A DNA stretch of 64,000 bases from Subtercola boreus. GTDB lineage: Bacteria > Actinomycetota > Actinomycetes > Actinomycetales > Microbacteriaceae. Positions 3,141-58,512 of this stretch are shown piece by piece. A model generated the notes under the pieces. It did no database searches. It was not told the origin of the DNA and saw only the letters and a program-made list of their open reading frames with translations. The translations under genes and the position numbers were made by a program. Positions within the stretch are counted from its first letter, which is position 1. Each line of letters begins with the position of its first letter. Location: the NCBI RefSeq assembly GCF_003399635.1, contig NZ_NBXB01000041.1:1-64000 (forward strand), written 5' to 3'.

Positions 3141-3211
3141 CCCGATCGGGAGGAGCTCAGACGATGTGCGCCGAAGAGCGCGGCATACTCGCTGAGCTCC
3201 TCCCGAACGGG
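3141..3211. repeat. Long imperfect hairpin, class D
   Basis: 20-bp arms (3141-3160 and 3192-3211) with one mismatch and a 31-base loop, between rtcB and the PIG-L gene. The arm core GGGAGGAGCTCAG recurs at 50577-50588, where the loop is again 31 bases long. There is no T-tract on either strand. Confidence 0.7.
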
Positions 3212-3229
3212 TAGCAATACGCTGGGTGG

Positions 3230-4123
3230 ATGCCGTTCACCGAACTCGAAGGGCACCCCGGGGCATCCGTGGTGCTGCTGCACGCCCACCCCGACGACGA
3301 GACTCTCGCAACCGGGGGTCTCATGGCACGCCTCGCGGCGGATGGATATCGCGTGGTGCTCCTCACCGGAACCCGAGGCGAGCAGGGCGAGGTCGTGCCC
3401 GGGCCGCTCAAGCCGCTGGAGGGCACGCGGGAGCTTGCGGCGGTGCGCGTCGCGGAACTCGCCGCCGCGATGCGCGCGCTCGGGGTCGACGACCACCGTT
3501 TCCTCGGCGCCGTCGCCGGTGCAAGAGCGGAGGCCGGTGCCGGAGCGGGAGCCGATGCCCGGGCAGGAGCAAGAGCGAAAGCGGGAGCATCTGCCGAGGC
3601 ATCCGGCGCACGGGCTGCCGGACTGGACCCGCGCGTATATGCCGATTCGGGCATGCAGTGGGGGCCCGACGGCACGGCCATCGCGGCCGACGACGCTCCG
3701 GTTGACGCGCTGGGCCTGGCACCACTCGACGAGATCGTCGAAGACGCCCTTGTGGTCGTGCGGGATGTCGCCCCGCGCCTCTTGGTCAGTTACGACGAGC
3801 GTGGCGGGTACGGGCATCCGGACCACGTGCGGATGCACGACGCGGCCGTCACCGTATCGAGGTTGACGGGCATCCCTCTCTATACCGTCGTCGCTGATTG
3901 GAAGGGTGACGCACCCGCGGCCCCGGGCGACGTGGTCGTGCCACTCGGCGAACATCGCGCCGCCACATTCGCCGCACTGGCCGCCCACGCCACCCAGCTC
4001 ACTGTCGACGGCGGCGACATCATCCTCTCCGGTGGGCAGCGTCATACCGTTGCCGACGTCGAGGTGTTCAGGCGTTTCGATGGCGTCGGCCCGGTCGATT
4101 CCGATCGGGTCACGGCACCCTGA
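3230..4123 (+). CDS. PIG-L family (LmbE/MshB-like) deacetylase
   Basis: 297 residues. The signature AHPDDE near residues 19-24 (metal-binding His, catalytic Asp, metal-binding Asp and Glu) marks the PIG-L/LmbE zinc deacetylases, which remove N-acetyl groups from sugars such as GlcNAc-Ins in mycothiol synthesis. GHPDHVRMHDA near residue 195 supplies the third metal ligand. Between about residues 98 and 127 lies an Ala/Gly/Arg-rich low-complexity stretch absent from typical members, encoded by a quasi-repeated GCGGGAGC-type DNA. The gene stands alone, so the substrate cannot be told; it might be MshB or Mca-like, or act on another acetylated sugar. Confidence 0.85.
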   Translation: MPFTELEGHPGASVVLLHAHPDDETLATGGLMARLAADGYRVVLLTGTRGEQGEVVPGPLKPLEGTRELAAVRVAELAAAMRALGVDDHRFLGAVAGARAEAGAGAGADARAGARAKAGASAEASGARAAGLDPRVYADSGMQWGPDGTAIAADDAPVDALGLAPLDEIVEDALVVVRDVAPRLLVSYDERGGYGHPDHVRMHDAAVTVSRLTGIPLYTVVADWKGDAPAAPGDVVVPLGEHRAATFAALAAHATQLTVDGGDIILSGGQRHTVADVEVFRRFDGVGPVDSDRVTAP

Positions 4124-4150
4124 TTTCCGTCGATCACAAGGGGTCGAGTG

Positions 4151-4166
4151 TTAGGCTCGCCTTACC
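4151..4166 (+). promoter_or_regulatory. Possible DtxR/IdeR iron box
   Basis: TTAGGCTCGCCTTACC, 51 bases before the ATG of the next gene, resembles the actinobacterial iron-box consensus (TTAGGTTAGSCTAACCTAA); 13 of 19 positions agree by my alignment. Such boxes bind DtxR/IdeR with Fe2+ and repress iron-uptake genes. Only a single, imperfect site is seen. Confidence 0.4.
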
Positions 4167-4217
4167 AGGACTCGTAGAAACGTGCTCGGTCTTCAGAAGA
4201 AAGGCACATTCACCCAC

Positions 4218-4994
4218 ATGAGCTTCATCACCTCACCCGCCTTTGCGGAAAAGGGTTACGTCATCCTCGACTCCTACGACCAGGTCGGCGACCCGAAAGA
4301 GTGGCTCGACCTCGAATTCGTGGACTGGAAATCGTCGGGCGTCACCCGTTTCGCCCCCCTCGCAAGCGCGTTCGGCGAGATGGAGTGCAACGGATTCTGG
4401 AACCACACGCCGCCCCGCACCGACAAAGACGGCGTCTGGGTGCAGGCGAACGTGGATGTCGCGCCCATTCTGAAGGCCCGCGCAGAGGAGCCCGGAGCGA
4501 ACATCGGCCGCTGCCGCGTCATCGAACTGCAGCCGAACGACTACACGAATGCCATCTACAACCTGCATCAGGACGACAACAACCGGCTGAACCCCGAGGG
4601 CACTGGTTGGATCGTGCGTGGCTTCTTCAACCTGTCGGATGATCCGTCATCGGTGCTGATCCTGCGCGAAGACCGTTTCAATCCCGATACCGAGGTGCGC
4701 ATCCCGCTCCCCGCCGGCGCGCAGGTCATCGTCGACACCCAGCGGTTCTGGCACGCCGTCTGGCAGGTCGGCCCCGAGCCGCGTTACTGCCTGATCACCT
4801 CGTGGGAGTCGGGCCCTGAGCTCGACGCCTACATCGAGAAGTACCACGGTGCCTCGAACAACGTGAACCCTCCGCTGGATGCGCACGTCATCGAGGATGC
4901 CCAGGCCGAAGTGCGCCGCCGCCTCGCGGAACGCTCCGCCACCCTGGCCTCCCAGGGCAAGAAGCTCGCCGACCCGGTCGACCCCGAGGCGTAG
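4218..4994 (+). CDS. Fe(II)/2-oxoglutarate dioxygenase-like protein of unknown function
   Basis: 258 residues. The start is the ATG at 4218 (MSFITSPAFAEKG); a GTG 36 bases upstream is in frame but gives an unlikely N-terminus. The pattern NLHQDDNN near residue 116 followed by RFWHAVWQ near 178 and PRYCLITSWESG near 190 fits the H-x-D ... H ... R layout of double-stranded beta-helix Fe(II)/2OG enzymes: two metal ligands, a distal His and an Arg that could hold 2-oxoglutarate. I know of no characterised relative. A possible iron box lies upstream and a strong terminator directly downstream, so it is a single-gene unit. A role in iron-dependent hydroxylation or in the iron response is inference. 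Confidence 0.5.
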   Translation: MSFITSPAFAEKGYVILDSYDQVGDPKEWLDLEFVDWKSSGVTRFAPLASAFGEMECNGFWNHTPPRTDKDGVWVQANVDVAPILKARAEEPGANIGRCRVIELQPNDYTNAIYNLHQDDNNRLNPEGTGWIVRGFFNLSDDPSSVLILREDRFNPDTEVRIPLPAGAQVIVDTQRFWHAVWQVGPEPRYCLITSWESGPELDAYIEKYHGASNNVNPPLDAHVIEDAQAEVRRRLAERSATLASQGKKLADPVDPEA

Positions 4995-5018
4995 CTCGTC
5001 CCTGTCTGAAACGGTTCT

Positions 5019-5052
5019 GGATGCTCGCCTCCTCCACAGGGGGCGAGCATCC
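5019..5052 (+). terminator. Terminator after the dioxygenase-like gene
   Basis: A perfect 11-bp stem (GGATGCTCGCC at 5019-5029 with its complement at 5042-5052), a 12-base loop, then GTGTTTCT. It lies 25 bases after the stop codon and separates this gene from radA. Confidence 0.7.
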
Positions 5053-5116
5053 GTGTTTCTCCACAGCTTTCGCCGCGGCTCCCGCGGGTGTCGGTGGCCG
5101 AGCCTAGGGTGGAAGC

Positions 5117-6445
5117 ATGCCCACCAAGCCCCTCAGCAACTTCAAGTGCACCGAGTGCGGGTGGACGACCCTGCGCTGGGCCGGCCGCTGCGGTGAATGC
5201 CAGGCGTGGGGCACGGTCGTCTCTGCGGCCGAGTCCACGGGACTCCAGGGCCAGGTGCGGGCCGCCAACATCGACGAGGCGAGCATCGCCCGGCCGATCA
5301 CCGAGATCGAGACCGACGCCGCGATGCACTGGGCGACGGGCATCACCGAGTTCGACCGCGTGCTCGGCGGCGGCCTGGTGCCGGGGGTGGCGATTCTGCT
5401 CTCCGGCGAGCCGGGGGTCGGCAAGTCGACGCTGCTTTTGGAGGTCGCGGCGCGGGCAGCGCAGGAACACCTGCGGGTGCTCTATGTCAGCGCCGAGGAG
5501 TCCGTCGGGCAGATCAAGATGCGGGCCGAGCGAACCCGATCCCTCTCCCCCACCCTCATGCTCGCCGCCGAGACCGACCTCGCAACGATCCTCGGGCAGA
5601 TCGACGCCGTGATGCCGCACCTCGTGATCGTCGACTCCGTGCAGACGGTGAGCAGCTCACAGATCGAAGGCGCCGCCGGCGGGCCGACACAGGTACGGGC
5701 CGTGGCGTCGGCGCTCATCCGCGTGGCGAAGGAGCGATCGCTGCCGGTGCTGCTCGTCGGGCACGTCACGAAAGACGGCTCCATTGCCGGGCCCCGCGTG
5801 CTCGAACACCTCGTCGACGTCGTCTGCCAGTTCGAGGGAGACCGCCAGACGTCGCTGCGTTTCGTGCGCACCCTGAAGAACCGGTTCGGGCCGACCGACG
5901 AGGTGGGCTGCTTCGAGATGACCGGGGAGGGCATCCGCGAGGTGCCGGATCCGAGCGGGCTGTTTCTCAGCCGGGGCGCCGAGGCAGTGAGCGGCACCTG
6001 CGTCACCGTGGCGCTCGAGGGGCGCCGCGCCCTGCCCGTCGAGGTGCAGGCGCTCGTGGTCGCCACGACCGCGCCGAACCCGAGGCGGGTGACGAACGGG
6101 GTCGACTCCTCGCGTGTCTCGATGCTGCTGGCGGTGCTGGAGCGACGGCTGAAGGTGAAGCTCTCCGACAAAGACGTGTACGTCTCGACCGTCGGCGGGG
6201 TGAAGCTTACCGAGCCGTCGGCCGACCTCGCGATCGCCCTCGCCATCGCGTCGGCGAACAACGACAGGGCGCTCCCCCACAACTTCGTGGCCTTCGGCGA
6301 GATCAGCCTCGCCGGTGAAGTGCGCCCCGTGACATCCAGCGACCTGCGGGCCACGGAGGCGCGTCGCCTCGGTTTCACGAAGATCCTCGGGCCCGGCCAG
6401 ACGGGCATCCGCCAGGCCTTCGTCTCGGCCTTCGAGACGGCTTAG
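5117..6445 (+). CDS. radA: DNA repair protein RadA (Sms)
   Basis: 442 residues, about normal for RadA. Order: a four-Cys zinc finger at residues 10-29 (CTECGW...CGECQAW), a RecA-like ATPase with Walker A GEPGVGKST near 97-105, the RadA-specific KNRFG motif near 254-258, and a C-terminal Lon-protease-like domain without the catalytic site (LSDKDVYVSTVGG onward). RadA drives branch migration during recombination repair. It has its own start ATG at 5117 after a short spacer. No operon partner such as disA follows; the next gene is convergent. Confidence 0.95.
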   Translation: MPTKPLSNFKCTECGWTTLRWAGRCGECQAWGTVVSAAESTGLQGQVRAANIDEASIARPITEIETDAAMHWATGITEFDRVLGGGLVPGVAILLSGEPGVGKSTLLLEVAARAAQEHLRVLYVSAEESVGQIKMRAERTRSLSPTLMLAAETDLATILGQIDAVMPHLVIVDSVQTVSSSQIEGAAGGPTQVRAVASALIRVAKERSLPVLLVGHVTKDGSIAGPRVLEHLVDVVCQFEGDRQTSLRFVRTLKNRFGPTDEVGCFEMTGEGIREVPDPSGLFLSRGAEAVSGTCVTVALEGRRALPVEVQALVVATTAPNPRRVTNGVDSSRVSMLLAVLERRLKVKLSDKDVYVSTVGGVKLTEPSADLAIALAIASANNDRALPHNFVAFGEISLAGEVRPVTSSDLRATEARRLGFTKILGPGQTGIRQAFVSAFETA

Positions 6446-6626
6446 GGGCTCGCCACTTCGCGCACGCGCACTGCCCCCACTTCCCCCGCAGACCGCCCGC
6501 GCACGCGCGCGCTGCCCTCACCGCCCCCGCAGACCGCGCTCGCCACGCCCCACCCCTCCTCGGTACATTCCGCACCCCGCGCCACCCACCCCGCGCATTC
6601 CGCGCCCCGCGCCTCCCACGGCATCG

Positions 6627-6682
6627 CGAAGGGACGCAAATCGTTCCAAAAGCAGCGCGGTCCTACGTTTTGGGGCCCTTCG
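6627..6682. repeat. Long imperfect hairpin, class C
   Basis: Arms starting CGAAGGGACGCAAA (from 6627) pair, with about four mismatches, with the segment ending at 6682. This is the first of a doublet in the radA/esterase spacer. The outer arm sequence is shared with 6730-6785 and 39818-39873. Confidence 0.6.
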
Positions 6683-6729
6683 GCATGGGCAGAGTCGCGG
6701 AGACCACCCCGCAGCAGCCCTGAGAACTT

Positions 6730-6785
6730 CGAAGGACGCAAAATGCTCCACAGCTGCAGGTTTGGAGCACTTTGCGTCCTTTTCG
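6730..6785. repeat. Long imperfect hairpin, class C
   Basis: Arms 6730-6750 and 6763-6785 pair over about 20 bp, with a small bulge and one mismatch around a 12-base loop. It is the second member of the doublet and lies 30 bases from the esterase stop codon, so it could end transcription from both sides. Confidence 0.65.
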
Positions 6786-10255: not shown

Positions 10256-12028
10256 CTACCCGACCGCGTTCGCGGCGGCGAGCCTCGTCACCGCGATGCG
10301 GGCCCGCGAGGCAGAGGTCGCCTTCAGCGCTGCGCGCGCGAGCGCCTCGGCCTCCGCTGTGGTGTGCCGGGCGAGTTCGGCCCGCACGTCGGCGATGGCC
10401 GCCGGCGTCATCGAGAGGGAGGTGACGCCGAGCCCGACGAGCACGACGGCGAGCAGGGGATCCGCGGCGGCCTCGCCGCACACGCCGACCGGCTTTCCGG
10501 CGTCCAGACCGGCCCGCCCGAGCATCCCGACGAGGCGGAGCACCGCCGGATGCCACGGATCCTGCAGGTTCGCGACGGAGCCGAGCAGGCGGTCGGCGGC
10601 GAGGGTGTACTGGGTGAGGTCGTTCGTTCCGATGCTGACGAAGTCGGCCGTCTCGAAGATCTGGTCGGCGACGAGCGCAGACGAGGGAACCTCGGCCATC
10701 ACGCCGGCGACCTGGATGCCGAGCTCCCGGGCGACGGTGGTGAAGTACTCGGAGTCGTCGGCATCGGCGACCATCGGCGCCATCACCCAGAGGTCGACGC
10801 GACCGGCGCCGGGCGCACCCGCGGCCGCGCCGGCACCCGCCGCGCGACCAGCGCCACCGTCCGCCGCGCCGCTCCCGTGGCGCCCCGCGCCGAGCACCCC
10901 GGCACCGTTCACCGCCTCCTCAGCACGCGCGAGCGCCGTCAGCTGGTCGATCAGGATCTGTTCGCTCGCCCGCAGCGCACGAATCCCCCGGAGCCCGAGC
11001 GCCGGGTTCTCCTCCGGTGCGTCGTTCAGGAAGCTGAGCGGCTTGTCGGCGCCCGCATCGAGCACGCGTACGACCACCTTCTTGCCGACGAAAGCGCGAA
11101 GCATCCGCTGGTATTCGACGAACTGTTCGTCGACCGTCGGCGCGACGCTCGCGTCGAGAAAGAGGAACTCCGTGCGGAACAGCCCGACGCCCTCCGCGCC
11201 GGCGGCCAGCGCCTCGGCAGCGCCGTCGGCCGAGCCGAGGTTCGCGAGCAGCGGGATGGCCGTGCCGTCGGCGAGCGCGCCGGGTGTCAGGGGGGCCGCG
11301 GCGAGGCTCGCGCGTTCGGCGAGGCGCTGGCGGGCATCCTGGACGTCGCCGTCGGAGGGTGACGTGTCGACGGTGCCGGCCGCAGCATCCAGAACCACGA
11401 ACGTGCCGTCGACGATGTTCTCGGCTCCCTCGACCCCCACGATGGCAGGAATCGACTTCGACCTAGCCAGGATCGCAGTGTGCGAGGTCGGCCCGCCCTC
11501 GCGCGTGATCAGCCCGAGAACCTTCCCGAGGTCGAGCAGCGCCGTGTCGGCGGGGGCGAGGTCGTGGGCGACGAGGATGAACGGCGCGTCGGACTCGGGG
11601 ATGCCCGGCGCCGGCACCCCACGGAGATGCGCGATCACGCGGCGGGAGACATCGTCGAGGTCGGTCGCGCGCTCGGCCATGTAACCGCCCATCTGAACGA
11701 GCAGGTCGCGAAACCCGGCGTACGCCTCGAACACCGCGCGCTCGGCGGTCCTGCCGTCGCCGAGCCGGGCCTCAATGTCCTCGACGATGGTGGGGTCGGC
11801 GGCCATCAGGGCCTGGGCGTTCAGAACGTCCTGCGCCTGGCCACCGGCCTTCTCGCCACGCGCCTCGAGGTCGGCTGAGACAGCGGCCAAGGCGGCCTGC
11901 ACTCGCGCGGAAGCCTCGGGCTGCGGCTCTGTGGCGACCTCGTCGATCGGCTCGGCGAGAGGTTCGGGCATCCGCAGTGTCGGGCCCACAGCAACCGACC
12001 GACCGACTCCGACACCGTTCAACACCAT
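10256..12028 (-). CDS. ptsI: Phosphoenolpyruvate-protein phosphotransferase (PTS enzyme I)
   Basis: 590 residues. Enzyme I moves phosphate from PEP to HPr at the head of the sugar PTS. The active-site His is His183 in GGPTSHTAIL. The PEP-binding barrel shows GLFRTEFLFLD, DAGADKPLSFL, ENPALGLRGIR and ASIGTND-type SIGTNDLTQY. The Cys of the C-terminal GVCGEAAAD is present. Near residues 410-440 a Gly/Ala-rich low-complexity insert (GAGAAAGAPGAG) interrupts the barrel, ahead of VDLWVMAPMV. The ATG at 12028 follows a good ribosome binding site (AAGGAG). No HPr gene is adjacent in this window. Confidence 0.93.
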   Translation of the reverse strand: MVLNGVGVGRSVAVGPTLRMPEPLAEPIDEVATEPQPEASARVQAALAAVSADLEARGEKAGGQAQDVLNAQALMAADPTIVEDIEARLGDGRTAERAVFEAYAGFRDLLVQMGGYMAERATDLDDVSRRVIAHLRGVPAPGIPESDAPFILVAHDLAPADTALLDLGKVLGLITREGGPTSHTAILARSKSIPAIVGVEGAENIVDGTFVVLDAAAGTVDTSPSDGDVQDARQRLAERASLAAAPLTPGALADGTAIPLLANLGSADGAAEALAAGAEGVGLFRTEFLFLDASVAPTVDEQFVEYQRMLRAFVGKKVVVRVLDAGADKPLSFLNDAPEENPALGLRGIRALRASEQILIDQLTALARAEEAVNGAGVLGAGRHGSGAADGGAGRAAGAGAAAGAPGAGRVDLWVMAPMVADADDSEYFTTVARELGIQVAGVMAEVPSSALVADQIFETADFVSIGTNDLTQYTLAADRLLGSVANLQDPWHPAVLRLVGMLGRAGLDAGKPVGVCGEAAADPLLAVVLVGLGVTSLSMTPAAIADVRAELARHTTAEAEALARAALKATSASRARIAVTRLAAANAVG

Positions 12029-14499: not shown

Positions 14500-15605
14500 G
14501 GACGACCGACTTCTCGCGGGCACCGAAACAGGGGCGGGCCCAGGCGATGGTCGTTGTGGAGACCGCCCTCAGGCCACATGCGCCGCACGGCGCTGCCCGG
14601 GCCTCGAAGGCCATCGCCGCGTCGCCGGCCGAGATTGCAGCGGAGCTGCGGCGAGCGCCCGGCCACATCTGGTCGAAACGGTTCACGCGGCGGGGGATCT
14701 CGGCGGGGGTCGTCGCCTGCTTCGCCACCCCCGGCGACGCCGTTGCCGCCACCGACGCACTCCGCCGAGCGGTATTGGGGGCCGCGACATCCATGACCGT
14801 GCTGGTCGCCGACCCGAACGGGTACAGCAACGGGGTCTGGCGCGCCGAAGGCAACGTGATGGCGCACATCCCGACCTTCACCCCCACCTCCGTCGAGGCC
14901 GGGCGCGGAACCCCTGGCCCGCCCGTCGCCCGCCCCACCGCACCCATCGCAGCCACGTCGGCGGGCGATCGACATACCGAAAATGGTCGGTATCCTCGCT
15001 CCAAACCGACAATTTTCGGTATCTCGATGGGGAAGCGGCGGGGGGAGGCGACGGTGCGAGCGGGAGGGCGGCCAGCGGGGGCGGCGGAGCAGGCGCAGGC
15101 GGCGGGGACTGCGGAGGCGGCGCGCCCGGTGACGGATGCCCGTGCCATGTTCATCGGGGCGACCAAGTATCGCGGGCCGCGGGCACTGGTTCAGTTGTCG
15201 CGCACCTGGTATCCGATGGTGGCGCGCATGCAGACGCTCCGCGGCTACGTCTGGCACACCGTGTACTGGGAACCGCCCTTCACCCTCGGAACCCTCGCCT
15301 TCTTCGCCACGCGCGACGATCTGCTGTCGTTCGCCAGGCTTCCGGCCCATCGCACGCTCATGCAGTGGATCACCCGCGGCACCAGGAACGGCACGGGTGG
15401 CTACATCCGCCTGCACCTCGCCCCCGATGAGGCCCCTGCCGACAGCGCGGCGCACCCGACCACCCCGGGGCCACCCGCACCCCCGACACCGACCACCCCG
15501 CAGCCACCCGCGCCCCGGCCACCGACAAACCCGCAGCCACCCGCGCCCCCGACACAGACAAACCCGCAGCCACCCGCGCCCCGCGCCGACGGGGACGCCC
15601 GATGA
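14496..15605 (+). CDS. Two-domain protein of unknown function with a hairpin repeat in its linker
   Basis: 369 residues. Residues 15-135 and 205-310 both look like compact alpha/beta domains with similar endings (WRAEGNVMAHIPTFTP; YIRLHLAPDE); the second, with VWHTVYWEPPFTLGTLAFFA, recalls ferredoxin-like or dimeric alpha-beta-barrel monooxygenase-type folds, but I cannot name a family. The linker (about 136-205) is Pro/Ala/Gly-rich and contains DRHTENGRYPRSKPTIFGIS, which is simply the translation of a class A hairpin (14968-15028). The C-terminal 55 residues are a PPAP/PTTPQPPAPRP-type Pro-rich tail built from short repeats. ATGA overlaps join it to both neighbours. Confidence 0.6.
   Translation: MRTTDFSRAPKQGRAQAMVVVETALRPHAPHGAARASKAIAASPAEIAAELRRAPGHIWSKRFTRRGISAGVVACFATPGDAVAATDALRRAVLGAATSMTVLVADPNGYSNGVWRAEGNVMAHIPTFTPTSVEAGRGTPGPPVARPTAPIAATSAGDRHTENGRYPRSKPTIFGISMGKRRGEATVRAGGRPAGAAEQAQAAGTAEAARPVTDARAMFIGATKYRGPRALVQLSRTWYPMVARMQTLRGYVWHTVYWEPPFTLGTLAFFATRDDLLSFARLPAHRTLMQWITRGTRNGTGGYIRLHLAPDEAPADSAAHPTTPGPPAPPTPTTPQPPAPRPPTNPQPPAPPTQTNPQPPAPRADGDAR
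14968..15028. repeat. Class A hairpin inside a coding sequence
   Basis: 23-bp arms (14968-14990 and 15006-15028) with two mismatches and a 15-base loop. Outer ends read ATCGA/TCGAT and inner ends GTCGG/CCGAC, as at 26466-26526; the outer ends are also shared with 27500-27560. Here it lies in frame within the interdomain linker of the two-domain protein. Confidence 0.75.
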
Positions 15606-20491: not shown

Positions 20492-20541
20492 GCCCCATCC
20501 TCCCGCACCCGCCCCCGAACCCGAAAACGCGCCGCAACAGG

Positions 20542-20612
20542 CTTTGTGAGACTCGGGCGCGCACGTGAGACCGGCACGCGCGTCTCACGTGCGCGCCCGC
20601 GTCTCACGAAAG
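20542..20612. repeat. Long imperfect hairpin between argA and clpC
   Basis: Arms 20542-20570 and 20583-20612 pair over 29 bp with one bulged base and one mismatch around a 12-base loop. The arms contain GTGAGAC twice. It is the most stable-looking hairpin in the window and has no T-tract. It lies just past the clpC terminator. Confidence 0.7.
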
Positions 20613-20648
20613 GTGTGGCGGGGGCGGGGGACGGGAAGGAGGACGCGA

Positions 20649-26465: not shown

Positions 26466-26526
26466 ATCGACTGGGGAGTTCCGGTCGGTATTCGCGCCGC
26501 GAACCGACTGGAACTCCCCAGTCGAT
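26466..26526. repeat. Class A hairpin after the pirin gene
   Basis: 23-bp arms (26466-26488 and 26504-26526) with one mismatch and a 15-base loop TATTCGCGCCGCGAA. Outer ends ATCGA/TCGAT and inner ends GTCGG/CCGAC. The 237 bases from here to the next gene contain C/A-rich sequence and no further gene. Confidence 0.75.
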
Positions 26527-27499: not shown

Positions 27500-27560
27500 A
27501 TCGATCCCCCGAAATCTGTCGTCTCACCGTGCGGAAAGCGACAACTTTCGGGGGATCGAT
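27500..27560. repeat. Class A hairpin between the chimera and the surface-protein gene
   Basis: 22-bp arms (27500-27521 and 27539-27560) with two mismatches and a 17-base loop. Outer ends ATCGAT, inner ends GTCG/CGAC. It lies between convergent genes, 55 bases from the surface-protein stop codon. Confidence 0.75.
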
Positions 27561-29329: not shown

Positions 29330-29389
29330 GGCGCCAGCTGGGCGCATCCGCTACCGTTCGAATTGTGGCGAGTGCGCCAAACTGGCGCC
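29330..29389. repeat. Long imperfect hairpin, class B
   Basis: 23-base arms (29330-29352 and 29367-29389) with five mismatches and a 14-base loop. GGCGCCAG, GGCGCATCCGCTAC and TGCGCCAAACTGGCGCC elements recur at 33185-33243. It lies between the stop of the cardiolipin synthase gene and the start of the surface-protein gene. The rest of this 262-base spacer is C-rich and shows no gene. Confidence 0.6.
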
Positions 29390-33184: not shown

Positions 33185-33243
33185 GGCGCCAGTTTGGCGC
33201 ATCCGCTACAACTCGAACTGTGGCGGTTGCGCCGAAATGGCGC
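33185..33243. repeat. Long imperfect hairpin, class B
   Basis: Arms near 33185-33207 and 33222-33243 with about four mismatches and a 14-base loop. It shares GGCGCATCCGCTAC, TCGAA, TGTGGCG and TGCGCC with 29330-29389. The 316-base spacer between lysS and panC also holds a short GAGGGC tandem run (33267-33291) and otherwise no gene. Confidence 0.6.
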
Positions 33244-33339
33244 GGACGCCCGTGAGCAGACGGGGAGGGCGAGGGCGAGGGCGAGGGCGAGGAGGCGGGA
33301 GAGCGGACGGAGACTGGGGGTGGGGGCGAGGGCGGGGGC

Positions 33340-34221
33340 TCAGCCGCCCAGGTAGACCGTCTCGTTGTCGATGAGGCGGGTGGCGCCGACGCGGGCCGCG
33401 ACCAGCACGATCGCCTTGCCGTGGTAGCCGTCGTCGACGGGCAGGAACGTCGTCGGGTTCACCACGCTGAGGTACTCGAGGTCGACGAGAGGTTCGCCCA
33501 TGCCCGCCGCCTGCGCCGCTGCGATCACCGAGTCGATGCCGCCGTCGGCCGCGGAGTCGGCAGCCTCGAGCGTGCGCGAGAGCACCCGCGCCGCGAGACG
33601 CTCACGCTCGTCGAGAAAACGGTTGCGGCTGGAGAGGGCAAGCCCGTCATCCTCCCGCACCGTCTCGACGACCTCGACGGTCACCGGGATGTTCAGGTCG
33701 CGCACCATGCGGCTGACGACGAACACCTGCTGGGCATCCTTCTGCCCGAACAGCACGAAGTCGGGCTGCACGATGTTCAGCAGCTTCGACACCACGACGA
33801 GCACGCCGTCGAAGTGTCCGGCACGGCTGCGACCCTCGAGCAGGTTGCCGACGTTGCCCGACGTCACCTTCGTCTGCGTCTTGCCGTCGGGGTACATCTC
33901 GCCGGGGGTCGGCGCGAACACGATCGCACCTGCACCGGCAGCGTCGCCGTCGAGGGTGCGGATGTCGGAGTCGAGGTCACGCGGGTACCGGTCGAGATCC
34001 TCAGCCTCGCTGAACTGCAGGGGGTTCACGAAGACTGAGACGACGACGACGTCGGCGATCTCTCGGGCGCGACGAACCAGCGCGAGGTGTCCGTTGTGCA
34101 GGGCGCCCATCGTGGGCACGAGGGCGACGGTCGGTTCTGCGACACCACGGCCCCGGGCATCCGTCTTCCGGGCGGCGACCTGGGCGCGCACCTCAGCGAT
34201 CGTGACAGCGAGTGTCGGCAC
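33340..34221 (-). CDS. panC: Pantothenate synthetase
   Basis: 293 residues from GTG at 34219-34221, which follows AAAGGAG. PTMGALHNGHLALVRRA near 38 is the HIGH-like ATP site, FVNPLQF, YPRDLD and LFGQKDAQQVFVV the family phrases, and SSRNRFL the KMSKS-like loop. It joins pantoate and beta-alanine. The DUF2520 gene lies upstream in the same direction after a 241-base spacer, in which I see nothing convincing. Confidence 0.92.
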   Translation of the reverse strand: MPTLAVTIAEVRAQVAARKTDARGRGVAEPTVALVPTMGALHNGHLALVRRAREIADVVVVSVFVNPLQFSEAEDLDRYPRDLDSDIRTLDGDAAGAGAIVFAPTPGEMYPDGKTQTKVTSGNVGNLLEGRSRAGHFDGVLVVVSKLLNIVQPDFVLFGQKDAQQVFVVSRMVRDLNIPVTVEVVETVREDDGLALSSRNRFLDERERLAARVLSRTLEAADSAADGGIDSVIAAAQAAGMGEPLVDLEYLSVVNPTTFLPVDDGYHGKAIVLVAARVGATRLIDNETVYLGG

Positions 34222-34462
34222 TGGGTCTCCTTTGCTGCGCGGACGTGTTCTCCGCGTGGCCGGCCGGACTCCGGATGCTCGTGCACCCGCCGCGCCCGGG
34301 GCAGTCGTTCGACCGCCGGCCGTGAAGCGGCGCCGGGTGATCGCGTTCTCGCGCTGCCCGGCTTCCGCCCCCAGAATGTTACTCGGGTTCCGGGCCACGT
34401 CGGCGCCGCCGCCGCGCGCCCGCCCTCCACTCCCGCGCCCGCCTCCTACGCGGGGCGCGGCG

Positions 34463-35191
34463 TCAGGAGCCGAGCGGCAGGCCGAGCGAGTCCTCGGGGC
34501 CGACGGCCCGCTGCAGGGCGTTCTCGACGCTCGAACGCACCAGCGGCGCCAGGAAGCGGCCGGGCGAGCCGAAGCCGATTCCGCCGAGGATGCCCGTGGC
34601 CTGGTCGACGATCGAGCTCGAGAACGTCGTGGCCGTTTCGATCGCGTCGGCGTAGGCCGCCCGGTCGCGCTCCGCGACGATGACGGGCTCGCCGCCCATC
34701 TCGACCACGAGCGCCTGGCCGATGGGCAGCACGGGGGCCGGCCCGGTGACGGCGAAGTACGCCCCAGCGAGGCGGGCGATGTCGATGCTCGATCCGGTGA
34801 AACTCATCGCGGGATGGATCGCGAGCGGGATCGCCCCCGCGGCGAGCGCCGGCGCGAGCACACCGATCCCGAACTGCGCCGCGGTGTGGATGACCAGCTG
34901 CCCCGCCTGCCAGGCACCGGCGGTCGCGAGCCCCTCCACGAGAGCCCCCAACTCGGCCGAGGGCACGGCCAGCAGCACCAGTTCGCTCCGCTCGATCAGC
35001 TGCGGGATCTCGAGGATCGGCGCCCCGGGCAGCATAGCCTCCGCCCGGTCGCGGCTCGCGTCGGAGACGGCCGACACCCCCACGATCGCATGCCCTGCGC
35101 CCGCGAGCGCGGCTCCGAGCACCGGACCCACCCGGCCCGCGCCGATGATGCCGATGCCGAGTCGTCCGGAGCGTTGGTGCGGTGAGGCCAT
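34463..35191 (-). CDS. Rossmann/DUF2520 dehydrogenase-like protein
   Basis: 242 residues from ATG at 35189-35191; a longer frame exists but starts with an unlikely N-terminus. GIGIIGAGRVGPVLGAALAG at the start is the NAD(P)-binding glycine loop, and the rest (LAIHPAMSFTGSSIDIARLA, TTFSSSIVDQATGILGG) matches the Rossmann-like/DUF2520 family, which in actinobacteria is regularly found next to panC. A role in pantothenate or related oxidoreduction is inferred only from that neighbourhood. Confidence 0.8.
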   Translation of the reverse strand: MASPHQRSGRLGIGIIGAGRVGPVLGAALAGAGHAIVGVSAVSDASRDRAEAMLPGAPILEIPQLIERSELVLLAVPSAELGALVEGLATAGAWQAGQLVIHTAAQFGIGVLAPALAAGAIPLAIHPAMSFTGSSIDIARLAGAYFAVTGPAPVLPIGQALVVEMGGEPVIVAERDRAAYADAIETATTFSSSIVDQATGILGGIGFGSPGRFLAPLVRSSVENALQRAVGPEDSLGLPLGS

Positions 35192-39672: not shown

Positions 39673-39790
39673 GGCCTGAGCAGTCTCCGCGGCCTGAGCA
39701 GTCTCCGCGGCCTGAGCAGTCTCCGCGGCCTGAGCAGTCTCCGCGGCCTGAGCAGTCTCCGCGGCCTGAGCAGTCTCCGCGGCCTGAGCA
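39673..39790. repeat. 18-bp tandem repeat (VNTR) after the symporter gene
   Basis: GGCCTGAGCAGTCTCCGC occurs six times in an exact head-to-tail array (39673-39780), then a 10-base partial copy. It starts 16 bases after the symporter stop. There is no spacer between units, so it is not a CRISPR array. On both strands, 18 bases is a multiple of three, so copy-number change would not shift frames that read through it. The array is followed by two class C hairpins. Confidence 0.9.
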
Positions 39791-39817: not shown

Positions 39818-39873
39818 CGAAGGGACGCATATCGTCCCAAAGCGCTTGTCGTGCCGCGATATGGGTCCCTTCG
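39818..39873. repeat. Long imperfect hairpin, class C
   Basis: 17-bp arms (39818-39834 and 39857-39873) with one mismatch and a 22-base loop. The outer sequence CGAAGGGACGCA matches 6627-6682. It is the first of a doublet. Confidence 0.65.
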
Positions 39874-39900: not shown

Positions 39901-39955
39901 CGAAGGGACCCATAGTGCTCCTACCGCTCGGGGATGGAGCGATATGGGTGCCTTG
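39901..39955. repeat. Long imperfect hairpin, class C
   Basis: Arms starting at 39901 and ending at 39955 pair over about 20 bp with several mismatches. It is the second of the doublet, 27 bases after the first. Together with the VNTR it fills most of the 362-base spacer between the symporter and the PH-domain gene. Confidence 0.5.
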
Positions 39956-40019
39956 GCGCGGCCTGCGGAGTACCTGTGGGGGCGGGGGGCGGGACTGGAA
40001 GGGCGGGGCAAGGGGGGGG

Positions 40020-49769: not shown

Positions 49770-49804
49770 CCCGGTGCGCCTCCCGACCCCTGCGCTTCTC
49801 CATC

Positions 49805-49858
49805 GAGTGGGCAGTTTGGGCCCCAAGACTCCGGTTTTGGGGCCCAAACTGCCCACTC
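49805..49858. repeat. Perfect 22-bp hairpin after the transporter gene
   Basis: Arms 49805-49826 and 49837-49858 are exact complements around a 10-base loop. The outer flank ATCGAGTGGGCAGTTTGGG is close to the class A hairpin at 26466. First of a doublet. Confidence 0.8.
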
Positions 49859-49885
49859 CCGGTCCCACTCCCGCGCTTTCGCCCG

Positions 49886-49941
49886 TCGGGAGTCGATTTC
49901 GGCCCCAAAACCTCGGTTTTGGGGCCGTTTTCGACTCCCCG
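49886..49941. repeat. Hairpin with an internal T/T block, second of the doublet
   Basis: Arms 49886-49911 and 49916-49941 pair except for three T-T mismatches in the middle and the outermost bases, around a 4-base loop. Inner arms CGGCCCCAAAAC match the neighbour hairpin GGGCCCCAA. It ends 6 bases before the hpt stop codon. Confidence 0.75.
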
Positions 49942-50498: not shown

Positions 50499-50567
50499 GC
50501 GATGAGCCTACCGAAGGTGGCGGGGCGGGCGCTGGGCCGGCTCTGCCGCGAAAGCGGACCTCCCCGC

Positions 50568-50640
50568 CCCCAACCGGGAGGAGCTCAGTCGATCCAGGCT
50601 CCATACCGCGTCGGTTGGGCTGGGGTCCTCCCGGGTGGGG
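50568..50640. repeat. Long imperfect hairpin, class D
   Basis: 21-base arms (50568-50588 and 50620-50640) with about four mismatches and a 31-base loop. The arm core GGGAGGAGCTCAG is the same as at 3148-3160 and so is the loop length. It lies in the 209-base spacer between tilS and hpt. Confidence 0.6.
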
Positions 50641-50707
50641 GTGACGGGTCAGCAAGAGACGACGGACGGCTCCTTACGTGTGCGGGGTGGGGGTGGTGGG
50701 TGGTGGG

Positions 50708-54852: not shown

Positions 54853-54866
54853 CAAAGGTTCGAATG

Positions 54867-54889
54867 CCCTTCCCTCGGGAAGGGTTTTT
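54867..54889 (+). terminator. Terminator after tRNA-Asp
   Basis: CCCTTCC-CTCG-GGAAGGG is a perfect 7-bp stem followed by TTTTT. It is a classic intrinsic terminator 15 bases after the tRNA. Confidence 0.85.
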
Positions 54890-54915
54890 CGGCCTCTGGA
54901 GGGGTTCACCTCTTC

Positions 54916-54988: not shown

Positions 54989-54990
54989 CT

Positions 54991-55026
54991 GCCTCGCCTT
55001 GCGGCTTCTACGCAGGGTGAGGCTTT
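54991..55026 (+). terminator. Terminator after tRNA-Phe
   Basis: An 8-bp stem with one mismatch (GCCTCGCC at 54991-54998 with the segment 55016-55023) is followed by TTTTTCTTT. It ends the tRNA-Phe transcript. Confidence 0.75.
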
Positions 55027-55060
55027 TTCTTTGCCCCCGGCAGCCGTTCCATGCTGCGGC

Positions 55061-55137
55061 CGGGCGATCGGGCCAGGCGGGCGGATCGGGTCAAGCGGGC
55101 GATCGGGCTAGGCGGGCGGATCGGGTCAAGCGGGCGA
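55061..55137. repeat. 35-bp tandem repeat, 2.2 copies
   Basis: The unit beginning CGGGCGATCGGGCCAGGCGG (55061-55095) repeats at 55096-55130 with one base changed, then breaks off after 7 bases. Each unit is itself built from two GATCGGG-containing halves. It lies between tRNA-Phe and the DUF2277 gene. Confidence 0.8.
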
Positions 55138-55143
55138 AAACGT

Positions 55144-55416
55144 TCAGGCGGGCGCGAAGCGGCGCGCCGAGCGCTCCTTCGCCTTGGCCGCCTCGACGTC
55201 GCGGTCCTTCGGCGGGGCCACGCTCACCAGGTCTTCGAGCAGGTGCCCGGTGATGTGCGCGATCTCTGCGACGGCGCGGTCGAACGCCTCCGCGTTGGCC
55301 TTCGAGGGCTTCGTTGTTCCGCTGATCTTCCGCACGTACTGCAGCGCTGCGGCATGCACTTCGTCGCCGGTCGCGGCCGGCTCGAAGTTGTGGAGAGTGT
55401 GGATGTTGCGGCACAT
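55144..55416 (-). CDS. DUF2277 protein
   Basis: 90 residues from ATG at 55414-55416. MCRNIHTLHNFEPAATGDEV is the conserved start of DUF2277, and ALQYVRKISGTTKPSKANAE and the end KAKERSARRFAPA fit. The Cys and His at the N-terminus are kept. Such proteins are widespread in actinobacteria; function unknown. Stand-alone gene. Confidence 0.85.
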   Translation of the reverse strand: MCRNIHTLHNFEPAATGDEVHAAALQYVRKISGTTKPSKANAEAFDRAVAEIAHITGHLLEDLVSVAPPKDRDVEAAKAKERSARRFAPA

Positions 55417-55659
55417 GTGAACCTCCGGGAGTCGGATGATCGCGATCAGGTTGTGAACAGCGTACACATCGCTTTCGGCCTGATCAAGGGCGCCGCCGAC
55501 CCCGTGCTGTTCACCAGGGCGCGGTTGCGGCGCCCGGGCTTCCGGCACGAGGATCGGGGCATGGGGCGACCAGCATCGGCACAGCCAGGCGGAACCGGAG
55601 ACGGGAGCAGCGCCGAAGCGCGAGGCGGAGGCAGCGTGCGGACGAGCCCCGCTGCACGG

Positions 55660-56404
55660 ATGCTCGCACGGAGGCCGCTCGCGACACTGTCCGTTCTGCT
55701 GCTGGGCCGCGGGGGCGCTGCAGGCGGTCGCCGCGACGATCAGGTGGGCACCGTGCATCCGGGATCTCGGCACTCTCGACTGCGCGCAGATCCAGAACCA
55801 CACATTCGACTACAAGATCGTGAGCCAACCGTTCGAGGCGATCCCCGTCGCCGTTCCGCTGGCCGGAATCTCGTCGCTGCTCCTGGTGGTCTTCTGGCTC
55901 GTCGCAGCGCGGTCGCTTCCCGTGCCGGGGAGCCGGAGCGCATCCGTGGCCCGGATCTTCTGCGTCGGGGCCGCGGCCGCCATCGCTCTCGTGGGCGGAA
56001 GCCAGCTGATCGCTGCCGCGAGCGGAAGCGTCCTCGGGGTCGTCGGCCCGACGGTGGGCCTCGCGGTCTGGTTCGTCGCAACTGTGCTGCCGATCACGGC
56101 GTCAGCACTGCTCATCGCCGTGTCGGCGGGAGTGCGTGCTCGCATCGTCTGGAGCGTGCTGCTGCTGGCGACGCTCGGCGGCGACGAGCTTGCCGAATAC
56201 GTGTTGCTGGAGCCGATCGACTCCTCCTACGACTCACCGCCCGGAATCGGCTACCCGGGTGCAGCGGGCCTCCTGCTCGCGGGGATCGCCTTCGCCGTCG
56301 CCGCGTTCACGGCCGGTCGCCGCCGCACTGCCGCACCCGGGGGTTCTGACCCGGCATCCGGCCCACCCCGCCCGGCTCAGAGCCTCAGCAACCCGTTCTC
56401 GTAG
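55660..56404 (+). pseudogene. Membrane-protein gene with a frameshift near its start
   Basis: ATG at 55660 reads MLARRPLATLSVLLL, a signal or first membrane helix. If one G of the run near 55704-55706 is removed, the frame continues without a break as AAGALQAVAATIRWAPCIRD, LGTLDCAQIQNHTFDYKIVS and then five further membrane helices (AVPLAGISSLLLVVFWLVAA to AGLLLAGIAFAVAAFTAGRR) to TAG at 56402-56404. Without that correction the only start is a GTG at 55820, in the middle of the conserved part. It is a frameshifted gene or a sequencing error. Multi-pass membrane protein of unknown function. It overlaps the end of the response regulator. Confidence 0.55.
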
Positions 56405-57075
56405 GCGAAGACGACGATCTGCACGCGGCTCTGCAGGGCGAGCTTCGACAGGATACTGCGGATGTGCGTCTTGGCCGTCGTCTCGCTGATGAACGCCGAC
56501 GCCGCGATGTCACCGTTGCTGAGGCCGGTGGCGGCGAGCAGGAAGATCTCCTGTTCGCGCGGTGTGAGGGGTGCCAGGGCGTCCGACGGGGCGGGGCCGG
56601 GCGCGTGTTGGCGGCCCGGCCCGGACGGCGGCGCAGCCCCGAACTCCCGCACGAGCGCGAGCGTCGCGGCGGGCGAGGCCACGGCATTCCCCGCATGGAC
56701 GGTGCGGATGGTCTCCAGCACCGACTCCGGCGACGCATCCTTGGTGAGGAATGCGCTCGCCCCGTGCTTCATCGCCTCGAATACCGCCTCCTCCCGCTGG
56801 AACGTGGTCAACACGATGACGCGAGGTGCGACCCCATCCGAAGCGCCGCCCGGCCCCTGCGTGATGCGGTGGGTCGCCTCGATGCCGCCCATCACGGGCA
56901 TCCGGATGTCCATCAGCACCACATCGGGACGGAACTCCTCGACCAGCCGCACGGCTTCCGCACCGTCGCCGGCCGAGCCGACGAGTTCGAGGTCGGGCTG
57001 GGATTCGATGAGCATCCGGATGCCGTAGACGAACAGTCGCTGGTCGTCGACGACCAGGACGCGGATCGGGCTCAC
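56377..57075 (-). CDS. NarL/LuxR-family response regulator
   Basis: 232 residues. VLVVDDQRLF at the start and VVLMDIRMPVMGGIEAT near 53 (phospho-acceptor Asp) form the receiver; LTPREQEIFLLAATGLSNGD near 170 forms the LuxR-type helix-turn-helix. A Pro/Gly-rich linker lies between. Its start overlaps the kinase stop by 4 bases, so the two form one signalling pair. The target genes are unknown; the adjacent membrane protein is a candidate. Confidence 0.93.
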   Translation of the reverse strand: MSPIRVLVVDDQRLFVYGIRMLIESQPDLELVGSAGDGAEAVRLVEEFRPDVVLMDIRMPVMGGIEATHRITQGPGGASDGVAPRVIVLTTFQREEAVFEAMKHGASAFLTKDASPESVLETIRTVHAGNAVASPAATLALVREFGAAPPSGPGRQHAPGPAPSDALAPLTPREQEIFLLAATGLSNGDIAASAFISETTAKTHIRSILSKLALQSRVQIVVFAYENGLLRL

Positions 57076-58358
57076 GCGGCCTCCTCCCCCGGCGCCTGCG
57101 ACGCCTGTGACGCGGCGGGGATGTAAGCGGTCACGATGTAGGCGGTATCCTCGCCACCCGCACCGTCGCCCGGGCCGGCCGTGAGCCAGCCGCCTGCGAG
57201 CCGGGCCCGATCCGTCATTCCCCGCAGCCCGAACCCCGGTCGGGCATCCGGTGCCCCACCCGCCGACCGGGCAGACGCCCCAGCCGCCGACCCGGGCGGC
57301 ACTCCGTCGCCGGTGCTCATGATGGCGAGCGCGAGCCCGGGGCCCTCCCAGGTGAGGGTGACCACGGCCGCCGGATGCGCGCCGCTGTGCCTCAGCGCGT
57401 TCGTGAGACTCTCCTGCACGATGCGGTAGACGGCCAGCTCCTGGCTGGGGGTGAGCGGGCGCGGGGCCCCGAACGCCTGCACCTCCACGGGCATGCCTGC
57501 CGCCGCGAGCCGGGAGGTGAGCGCGGGCAGATCCTCGAGGCCGGGCTGCGGGCGATCGGGCGTCTCGTCGCGGAGACCCTCGATCAGCCCGCGCAGGTCA
57601 CCGAGGGCGGTGCGCGCGGTGTCGGCGATCTCCCGCAGAGCGAGGTCGGTCGTCTCGGGCTTCGTTTCCCGCAGGAAGCGCGACCCGTCGGCCACGGCGA
57701 CCACGACAGCGAGCGAGTGGGCGAGCACGTCGTGCACCTCCTGCGCGATGCGCGCACGCTCCTTGACACCCTGCAGTTCGAAGGCCGCCAGGGTCAGTTC
57801 GGCCTCTGCCTCGTCGAGGAGCTTGCGGTCGTCACGGCGGCGGGCGCTCACCGTCATCGCGAAGCCGGCGGTCCAGGCTGCGGCACAGAACACCGCGCCC
57901 ACCACGGCGAGCGTGATCGCATAGCGCAGGTATTCGCCCGGAGACGACAGCAGCCCTCCCCCTGCCCAGCCCAGCCAGTCGCCGCTGAAGACCAGCAGGA
58001 AGCCGACGAGCACAGCCTGCAGCACCACGACGAGCAGCCCGGCCCAGCGCACGCGCGGGGAGGCGTGGGCCGCGACCACGAAGGCGACGAGGATGCTCGC
58101 CCCGGCGATCTGCCAGGTCGTCGACTGCGGCCGTTCGAGCAGTCCGGCGGCCTGGGCAAGCGGCACCACGAGCAGGATCCCGAGCGCGATGCGGGGAAAC
58201 TCCCGTGCGATGCCGATGGCGACGGCGTACGCGGCGAGGGCGAGGTAGAACGAGACGGCGTGGATGCGGCCCGCTTCGGCCATGATCCAGAGCACCAGGA
58301 ACACGACCGCGATCGCGGGGAGGATGGCGGGGCGGAGGAGCTTGAGCAGGGCGGGCAT
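57072..58358 (-). CDS. NarX/DesK-type sensor histidine kinase
   Basis: 428 residues. About five or six N-terminal membrane helices (residues 10-165) are followed by the HisKA_3 box (RARIAQEVHDVLAHSLAVVV near 202-221, with the phospho-acceptor His) and a HATPase domain with N box QESLTNALRHSGAH and G box GFGLRGMTDRARLAGG. There is no extracytoplasmic sensor domain, so it probably senses within the membrane. An Ala/Gly-rich insert lies between the N and G boxes. It is the first gene of the pair. Confidence 0.92.
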   Translation of the reverse strand: MPALLKLLRPAILPAIAVVFLVLWIMAEAGRIHAVSFYLALAAYAVAIGIAREFPRIALGILLVVPLAQAAGLLERPQSTTWQIAGASILVAFVVAAHASPRVRWAGLLVVVLQAVLVGFLLVFSGDWLGWAGGGLLSSPGEYLRYAITLAVVGAVFCAAAWTAGFAMTVSARRRDDRKLLDEAEAELTLAAFELQGVKERARIAQEVHDVLAHSLAVVVAVADGSRFLRETKPETTDLALREIADTARTALGDLRGLIEGLRDETPDRPQPGLEDLPALTSRLAAAGMPVEVQAFGAPRPLTPSQELAVYRIVQESLTNALRHSGAHPAAVVTLTWEGPGLALAIMSTGDGVPPGSAAGASARSAGGAPDARPGFGLRGMTDRARLAGGWLTAGPGDGAGGEDTAYIVTAYIPAASQASQAPGEEAA

Positions 58359-58452
58359 GTCTTCACGCTAGGGGTCCACGCGCCCCGCACCCAGCGTCGC
58401 GGCCGGATCTCATCCCCCCGGACGATCCCCCGCGCCGCCCGCGAGCCAGAAG

Positions 58453-58512
58453 CGCGCCCGTTTGGGTCATCCGCGCGTGCGCGCGCAGGGGCGGGTGACC
58501 CAAATAGGCGCG
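58453..58512. repeat. Long imperfect hairpin, class B-like
   Basis: 22-base arms (58453-58474 and 58491-58512) with three mismatches and a 16-base loop. GCGCC, TTTGGG, TCATCCGC on one side and GCGGGTGA, CCCAAAT, GGCGC on the other follow the class B plan (29330, 33185) with altered cores. It lies between the DUF998-like gene and the kinase gene. Confidence 0.6.

What the first reader, a model, noticed from the sequence alone, without database searches (positions are those of the whole stretch)
3141..58512. About fifteen long imperfect hairpins, mostly between genes, in a few sequence classes
Inverted repeats of 55-75 bp with 17-29 bp arms lie at 3141, 6627, 6730, 14968, 20542, 26466, 27500, 29330, 33185, 39818, 39901, 49805, 49886, 50568 and 58453 (start positions), about one per 4.3 kb. 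They are not ordinary terminators: they lack T-tracts, are much longer, and fall into classes with shared sequence (D: 3141, 50568; C: 6627, 6730, 39818, 39901; B: 29330, 33185, 58453; A: 14968, 26466, 27500, probably 49805). Several occur as close doublets. This resembles REP/BIME-type elements but I know of no such description for this lineage.
Basis: partly seen in the sequence, partly recalled or inferred. Interest (0 to 1): 0.75.

Follow-up and report, generated by a model that had tools for sequence, protein, structure and literature searches.

The report
Palindrome families paired with Vsr-like nucleases
The hairpins between genes in this bacterium are copies of several fixed-length DNA palindrome families, and for most of them a relative of a DNA-cutting enzyme gene was found sitting between or beside copies of the same palindrome, a pairing that may be a new kind of genome-wide repeat system.

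Summary
In detail: all 15 hairpins exist, fall into sequence families and exceed chance. The genome is a Subtercola (Microbacteriaceae). The families recur genome-wide (family C: at least 72 places). Copies have a nearly constant length (C 56 bp, A2 60), conserved dyad arms, a free centre and no T-tract; they lie after genes, seldom in divergent gaps.

They are not REP/RAYT: Y1 transposase was found in 0 of 12 Subtercola genomes, and GTAG at the ends of 1 of 60 copies. Instead, DUF559/Vsr-like (PD-(D/E)XK) nuclease genes carry one palindrome family on both sides: 17 of 52 loci in Subtercola against 1 of 655 control genes, 12 of 27 top loci in other genera, 10 of 16 in other families of the order. 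Nuclease and palindrome similarity correlate (Mantel r 0.70 and 0.48). Family K is abundant in exactly the five of 12 genomes with its nuclease; families C and A2 have exceptions.

In 9 of 11 groups the nucleases sit at shared chromosomal places; they are under purifying selection, yet usually diverge faster than neighbours. Best reading: a system that works like REP/RAYT but uses an unrelated nuclease. The pairing is shown; recognition, cutting and spreading are inferred.

The parts
3141..3211 (.). Family D palindrome, 71 bp. D palindromes stand on one side of clade II nuclease genes in G003 (L212) and G007 (L213); no D nuclease recognised in this genome.
6627..6682 (.). Family C palindrome, 56 bp, diverged; orthologue in G001, none in G003.
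6729..6784 (.). Family C palindrome (GAGGACGC subtype), doublet with 6627.
14968..15028 (.). Family A palindrome, 61 bp; orthologous elements in G003 and G001. My gene caller put it inside a low-scoring frame (14547-15605). Cognate nuclease proposed at G000:C29:28911-29852 (L201).
20532..20621 (.). Family H palindrome with repeated GTGAGAC; H copies stand on both sides of a clade III gene in G002 (L397). The same gap holds an A2 element in G001 and an H element in G002.
26466..26526 (.). Family A3 palindrome, 61 bp; 58 of 61 bases, centre included, match an element at another locus in G003. An A3-type palindrome adjoins the G003 allele of the A-locus nuclease (L249).
27500..27560 (.). Family A palindrome, 61 bp, convergent gap; absent from G003.
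29330..29389 (.). Family B palindrome, 60 bp; G003 has an A3 element in the same gap. Link to clade III nucleases tentative.
33185..33244 (.). Family B palindrome, 60 bp; G003 has a weak E-type stem in the same gap.
39818..39873 (.). Family C palindrome, 56 bp. Cognate nucleases proposed at G000:C29:131224-132195 (L187) and C24:18072-19091 (L199).
39901..39956 (.). Family C palindrome, 56 bp, doublet with 39818; both absent from G003.
49802..49861 (.). Family A2 palindrome, 60 bp; orthologues in G003 and G001. Cognate nuclease at G000:C42:5388-6332, between two A2 copies (L200).
49888..49939 (.). Palindrome related to L128:8634-8691, family unassigned; no counterpart in G001 or G003; G002 has a differing stem at the site.
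50567..50641 (.). Family D palindrome, 75 bp; orthologues in G003 and G001.
58453..58512 (.). Family E palindrome, 60 bp; orthologue in G001 with changes on both arms. An E palindrome lies 63 bp after a clade III gene at G000:C41:94082-94873.

Best explanation
The hairpins are members of several families of dispersed, dyad-symmetric DNA elements, most about 56-62 bp long, tied to chromosomal nuclease genes of the DUF559/Vsr-like PD-(D/E)XK type. Shown: the families; a nearly constant length; conserved arms with a free centre; position after genes; nuclease genes set between two copies of one family far more often than other genes; correlated divergence of nuclease and palindrome; copy numbers that differ greatly between species and, exactly for family K and with exceptions for C and A2, follow the nuclease; nucleases that in most groups keep their chromosomal place, stay under purifying selection and usually diverge faster than their neighbours. 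Inferred: the nuclease recognises its palindrome as a symmetric site (constant spacing, half-site degeneracy and few G-U pairs favour duplex DNA bound by a dimer over an RNA hairpin); its nicking or cutting promotes copying of the palindrome to new intergenic places, which persist where they do little harm, after stop codons; when nuclease specificity drifts, old copies decay and a new family amplifies. It works like REP/RAYT but is not a member of that family.
For: Both-sided same-family flanking: 17 of 52 nuclease loci against 1 of 655 control genes (Fisher 6e-20); 12 of 27 against 0 of 55 in other genera; 20 of 29 order-wide, 10 of 16 outside Microbacteriaceae. Mantel r 0.70 (26 loci) and 0.48 (14 loci), 0 of 5000 permutations each. 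K: 89-145 matches in the five genomes with a K nuclease, 0-4 in the other seven. Invariant catalytic-type residues in clade I. dN/dS 0.16-0.21 in five pairs. A near-identical element at different loci in two species, 58 of 61 bases.
Against: 35 of 52 loci lack a same-family pair and 10 have no stem within 350 bp. G007 has 40 C matches without a C nuclease found; G004 and G010 have 26 and 14 A2 matches without an A2 nuclease, and G002 carries an A2-group nuclease with 0 A2 matches. No clean empty site or target duplication was seen. Many nuclease pairs at 50-60% identity have unlike palindromes. Near-random centres beside conserved arms do not fit plain transposition followed by neutral decay. 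The two stricter covariation counts (pairs and types) were not above shuffles. No activity is known. Genomes are related, so the 5-of-12 pattern is not 12 independent trials.
Confidence: 0.6

Rival explanations
1. The palindromes act mainly as transcription terminators or mRNA 3'-end stabilisers; their sharing of sequence is a by-product and nuclease genes merely carry such ends.
For: 59 of 61 intergenic stems lie in convergent or tandem gaps; in 60 model-picked copies the median stop-codon distance is 31-57 nt; strong RNA folding in all 15 windows folded.
Against: No T-tract in 0 of 15 and 0 of 60 tested; family sequence shared between loci and copy number tied to a nuclease; the upstream palindrome of a nuclease gene lies before its start codon in 30 of 52 loci, not at its 3' end.
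Confidence: 0.2
2. The palindromes are self-marks, decoys or operators for a defence- or toxin-like nuclease: binding sites that restrain or feed back on the enzyme, not things that the enzyme spreads.
For: Clade II carries an AbiEi_4 domain and weak AbiEi matches; arms stay conserved while centres are free, as for a bound site; nucleases diversify quickly in place.
Against: Clade I has no defence-model match above chance in 3 of 3 scanned; dozens of dispersed copies with wide differences between related species are hard to gain without a copying mechanism.
Confidence: 0.25
3. REP/BIME elements moved by a RAYT, or MITEs of another resident transposon.
For: Dispersed intergenic palindromes, doublets, enzyme gene between two copies, as reported for rayt genes (passages of PMC2817692).
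Against: PF01797 found in 0 of 12 genomes; GTAG at 1 of 60 ends, CGTC at 10 of 60, about what base composition gives by my estimate. I did not search for insertion sequences with matching ends.
Confidence: 0.04
4. Palindromes that keep themselves symmetric by template-switch (quasipalindrome) mutation, with no dedicated enzyme.
For: Changes on both arms at orthologous sites and a half-deleted element in G001.
Against: Does not explain family sharing between loci, flanking of nuclease genes, or correlation of nuclease and palindrome. May act in addition.
Confidence: 0.05

Closest known systems
REP elements with REP-associated tyrosine transposases (RAYT/TnpAREP, REPtrons)
   Same: Enzyme gene flanked by two copies of a palindrome, solo copies dispersed between genes, several families per genome, enzyme and repeat diverging together (PMC2817692 passages; PMC8266576 abstract).
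   Different: Enzyme is a DUF559/Vsr-like PD-(D/E)XK nuclease and not a Y1 HUH transposase; elements are about 56-62 bp with long dyad arms and an unconserved centre; no GTAG tag; actinobacterial host, whereas the word Actinobacteria has 0 occurrences in PMC3733652 and PMC2817692.
CGTC-tagged REPs without a known transposase (PMC3733652, passages)
   Same: Palindromic repeats without a RAYT.
   Different: Stems there are 8-9 bp with loops of 4-5 nt and a CGTC end; here arms are 17-23 bp and CGTC is at 10 of 60 ends.
Vsr, DUF559 and Vsr-like homing endonucleases
   Same: Nuclease domain by profile: PF04480 above cut-off, weak PF18741 and Vsr matches; PDB 3hrl at E 3e-4 and, only weakly, mobile intron protein 3r3p at E 0.31; PADLOC homing-endonuclease match at 2e-5 for one clade II protein.
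   Different: Described roles are mismatch repair or homing (Caulobacter VsrA with a DUF559 domain: passages of PMC12907096); no dispersed palindrome family was described in the passages seen.

Membership tests
REP/RAYT (REPtron) | Y1 (IS200/IS605-like) transposase in the genome | tested here: not met
   PF01797 matches in 0 of 12 Subtercola genomes; control rings in 5 of 14
REP/RAYT (REPtron) | GTAG (or CGTC) tag at one end of the repeat | tested here: not met
   GTAG 1 of 60, CGTC 10 of 60 copies of three families
REP/RAYT (REPtron) | dispersed intergenic palindromes in many copies | tested here: met
REP/RAYT (REPtron) | enzyme gene between two copies of the repeat | tested here: met
   met for 17 of 52 loci, but with a different enzyme
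DUF559/Vsr-like PD-(D/E)XK nuclease (the enzymes) | profile match above the curated cut-off | tested here: met
   PF04480 above cut-off in 6 of 6 clade I and II proteins scanned; clade III: no nuclease domain above cut-off in 4 scanned, linked by homology only
DUF559/Vsr-like PD-(D/E)XK nuclease (the enzymes) | conserved acidic and Q/H core residues | tested here: met
   E213, D246, E257, D259, Q262, H263 invariant in 17 clade I proteins
DUF559/Vsr-like PD-(D/E)XK nuclease (the enzymes) | DNA cleavage | not testable with these tools
   needs purified protein
MITE | terminal repeats matching a resident transposon | not tested
   no survey of insertion-sequence ends was made
MITE | target-site duplication | tested here: inconclusive
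   no clean empty site among the gaps aligned with G001-G005; flanks of 60 copies show no duplication-like pattern by column majority
intrinsic terminator | T-tract after the stem | tested here: not met
   0 of 15 and 0 of 60
intrinsic terminator | RNA 3' ends at the stem | not testable with these tools
   needs RNA data

The most novel reading that the evidence does not exclude
A previously undescribed, order-wide class of nuclease-palindrome systems: chromosomal Vsr-like nucleases whose DNA specificity changes quickly in place and drags a genome-wide set of dyad target sites with it, so that palindrome families amplify and die as the nuclease allele changes. This would be a bacterial counterpart of PRDM9-hotspot turnover (recalled comparison), reached independently of RAYT-REP.
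Probability: 0.45. Interest if true: 0.92.

Novelty: categorically new. Interest (0 to 1): 0.86.

Why it matters
It gives DUF559, a widespread family of unknown role, a DNA context, and gives intergenic palindromes in Actinomycetota a candidate enzyme. If the nuclease drives the palindromes, the RAYT-REP layout has arisen at least twice from unrelated enzymes, so the question of why cells keep such enzymes and their fields of palindromes can be tested on two independent cases. It also offers many natural nuclease-site pairs of differing specificity. The layout resembles REPtrons; I rate it categorically new because both the enzyme superfamily and the build of the repeat differ and no paper in the searches listed describes the pairing.

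Tried and rejected
RAYT/Y1 transposase: no match in 12 genomes. Rfam at gathering scores: only 4 tRNAs in the window. Phage carriage: 600 stretches of viral contigs matched a pattern, none encodes a relative by tblastn. Known defence families: of 5 proteins, 2 clade I had no PADLOC match, 1 had two at E 0.02-0.04, and the 2 clade II had AbiEi and homing-endonuclease matches. Clean empty sites: sought in gaps aligned with G001-G005, none clean (the printout was cut). Shared slots: relatives hold a long stem in 14 of 29 comparisons where this genome has one and in 3 of 35 convergent or tandem ones where it has none; only 6 of the 14 are unlike families and 3 of the 6 come from one gap, so I do not rest on it. 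Recent mobility of the whole nuclease unit within the genus: not supported in 9 of 11 groups, which share flanks; open in the other 2 (one of them limited by a contig end) and for L204 in group K. Integron attC sites: considered from recall only. Literature: ten searches, in open-access papers only, so absence is weak evidence.
Full report
WHERE IT IS. The window is contig C41:1-64000 of a 3.85-Mb genome in 97 contigs. The closest named record is Subtercola boreus P27444 (82% protein identity in the best segment), so it is Microbacteriaceae. Eleven further genomes of the genus were searched (G001-G011).

THE OBSERVATION. All 15 hairpins are there. An ungapped stem scan found 28, 15 and 10 stems in the window at scores >=11, 13 and 15, against 1-11, 0-2 and 0 in ten shuffles. 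14 of the 15 are among them; 6627 was recovered as a diverged family member. In 451 kb of this genome 30 stems reach score 15, against 0, 1 and 0 in three second-order shuffles. In 835 kb, 72 stems reach 13.5 and 46 of them fall into clusters. Of the 72, 32 lie in convergent gaps, 27 in tandem, 2 in divergent, 10 in called coding sequence and 1 at an edge (gene calls are from my own simple caller). By gap length about 17 of 61 would be expected in divergent gaps (P 6e-7).

FAMILIES. In the sample plus the syntenic parts of five relatives, 20 family-C copies (17 in this genome, 3 in G001) have 17-bp arms and a 22-bp centre; 18 are exactly 56 bp and 2 are 57. Alignments of A2 (11 copies) and K (12) are gapless at 60 and 48 columns; in G004 K goes on symmetrically by a few bases on each side. 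The C model gives 143 matches in this genome, both strands counted and only 150 of 1704 first-look candidates scored, so at least 72 places. In the capped lists spans are nearly all 56 (C; a few 55 or 57), 60 or 61 (A2) and 48 (K). I fetched 60 copies from the upper part of those lists (20 each of K in G004, A2 in G001, C in G000), all of the commonest length. Arm identity is 0.92, 0.94 and 0.79; centre identity 0.47, 0.61 and 0.48; 35 lie in convergent, 20 in tandem and 5 in divergent gaps. None has a T-tract. Cells with changes on both arms number 34 of 374 (C), 10 of 253 (A2) and 12 of 204 (K), above all 500 shuffles in each case and above the slid controls; but the stricter counts (pairs with such a change, further pair types) are within the shuffles. 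By my count of those tables G-U pairs make 20 of 831 cells, and in C mismatches gather at a few columns (10, 13, 15, 19-22). With the constant centre length I take this to favour two half-sites in duplex DNA over an RNA hairpin; that is inference.

TURNOVER. Against G003 (about 93% DNA identity), 14968, 49805 and 50567 have counterparts, while 6627/6730, 27500, 39818/39901 and 49888 have none. Other gaps hold another family: the 29330 gap has an A3 element in G003 that matches window 26466, at another locus, in 58 of 61 bases, centre included; the 33185 gap has a weak E-type stem; the 20532 gap has an A2 element in G001 and an H element in G002. G001 keeps only the left part of 26466. 14968 and 58453 have orthologues in G001 with changes on both arms.

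THE ENZYME. Y1 transposases were not found in the 12 genomes. Two C copies flank a 324-residue gene in this genome and its orthologue in G001. Pfam gives DUF559 above cut-off and a sub-threshold REase_MTES_1575 match. Paralogues stand beside other families: the C2 subtype at C24:18072, A2 on both sides at C42:5388, A at C29:28911. PF04480 finds 61 places in the 12 genomes. I examined 54 loci: 52 of those places and two more (L201, L202). Nine places were left out, eight of them a protein type of about 1250 residues. A homologous frame could be assigned in 52 of the 54 (L248 and L253 dropped). Stems lie within 350 bp upstream in 30, downstream in 30, on both sides in 18, on both sides and of one family in 17 (15 of 33 clade I, 2 of 19 clade II), and nowhere near in 10. 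For 655 control genes the numbers are 66, 154, 18 and 1 (Fisher 6e-20). Two loci counted as one-sided have a second like stem inside the end of the frame (L201, L218). Clade I has an EYDGxQHR core; clade II an AbiEi_4 domain and a DUF559/Vsr-like domain. Clade III is linked by homology only; Pfam shows AbiEi_1 in 2 of 4 and no nuclease domain above cut-off. Of 17 clade III loci, 10 have a stem near and 2 have one family on both sides; one of these is family H, that of window 20532. This is the weakest link, and with it the assignment of B, E and H.

GENERALITY. Clade I occurs in 111 of 150 Microbacteriaceae genomes, 65 of 85 genera, and in 159 of 198 genomes of the order. Of 27 top loci from other Microbacteriaceae genera, 12 have one family on both sides against 0 of 55 control genes. 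Of 29 order-wide loci it is 20, among them 10 of 16 from five other families. These are the best-scoring loci, not a random draw, and the control there is small.

CORRELATION. Nuclease identity and palindrome similarity correlate (clade I, 26 loci, r 0.70; clade II, 14 loci, r 0.48; 0 of 5000 permutations each), although many pairs at 50-60% identity have unlike palindromes: the median score is 11 above 50% identity against 8 below 45% in clade I. By eye the nuclease tree (49 rows, 22 of 46 inner branches well supported) groups by palindrome family. The K model matches 89-145 times in the five genomes with a K nuclease and 0-4 times in the other seven; it was built from copies beside those nucleases, but 2-3 seeds per genome cannot make dozens of matches. 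C is high where its nuclease is (G000 143, G001 116) and low in G003 (9), but G007 has 40 without a C nuclease found. A2 is highest in G001 (106), G003 (92) and G000 (42); G004 has 26 and G010 14 without an A2 nuclease, while G002 and G006 carry A2-group nucleases with 0 and 2 matches; the G006 gene has a variant palindrome.

PLACE AND PACE. Related nuclease loci share flanks in 9 of 11 groups, so there the genes are inherited in place; two groups and L204 show no shared flank. In 18 of 19 compared pairs the nuclease (51-85% identical) is less alike than its best neighbouring protein (78-99%), for example 52% against 94-99% at the A locus of G000 and G003; the exception is the A2 pair of G000 and G003 (92% against 83%). 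In 18 of 19 pairs the N-terminal 110 residues are less alike than the nuclease core (neighbour values include some spurious frames). Five pairs give dN/dS 0.16-0.21, so the proteins are kept. At the place of the C nuclease, G003 and G002 hold a single palindrome of another family and G006 none; the remaining genomes were not resolved.

READING. The layout is that of RAYT-REP: an enzyme gene between two repeats, solo repeats after genes, and linked divergence. The enzyme is of another superfamily and the repeats are built differently, so I say that it works like REP/RAYT and is not a member. What the nuclease does to the palindrome is not shown. Spread by nicking or cutting and repair would account for the copy-number differences and the changes of family in a gap. 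Conserved arms beside near-random centres show that arm sequence matters after insertion, which plain transposition does not explain and a bound site would; hence the self-mark or operator rival keeps weight.

LITERATURE. Ten searches of open-access full text listed no paper that, by title or abstract, links DUF559 with dispersed palindromes. I saw passages of PMC3733652, PMC2817692 and PMC12907096, a term search without hits in PMC6006769, and the abstract and outline of PMC8266576.

Noticed in passing
window 39673-39780: Six tandem copies of an 18-bp unit (GGCCTGAGCAGTCTCCGC) between two convergent genes, just before the family-C doublet.
   Followed up: no
L036:41-151 and 10627-10736: A Subtercola contig has palindromes with 47-48-nt arms near both ends; C and A2 matches in G007 also lie close to contig ends, as if assembly broke at palindromes.
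   Followed up: no
G005 syntenic region (L160-L163): Stems with GTATCGAAACCCC / GGGGTTTCGATACG beside CTACTCAAC, which I recall as a common repeat of this bacterial group; no nuclease link was sought.
   Followed up: no
window 33500-35182 (+): A 561-residue frame with relatives in many bacteria, but interrupted or in pieces in most Subtercola genomes, while my gene caller prefers minus-strand frames there.
   Followed up: no
G000:C11:318415, G000:C34:125827, G000:C15:39524: Clade II DUF559 genes of this genome without a convincing palindrome beside them; family D has copies here but no recognised nuclease.
   Followed up: partly
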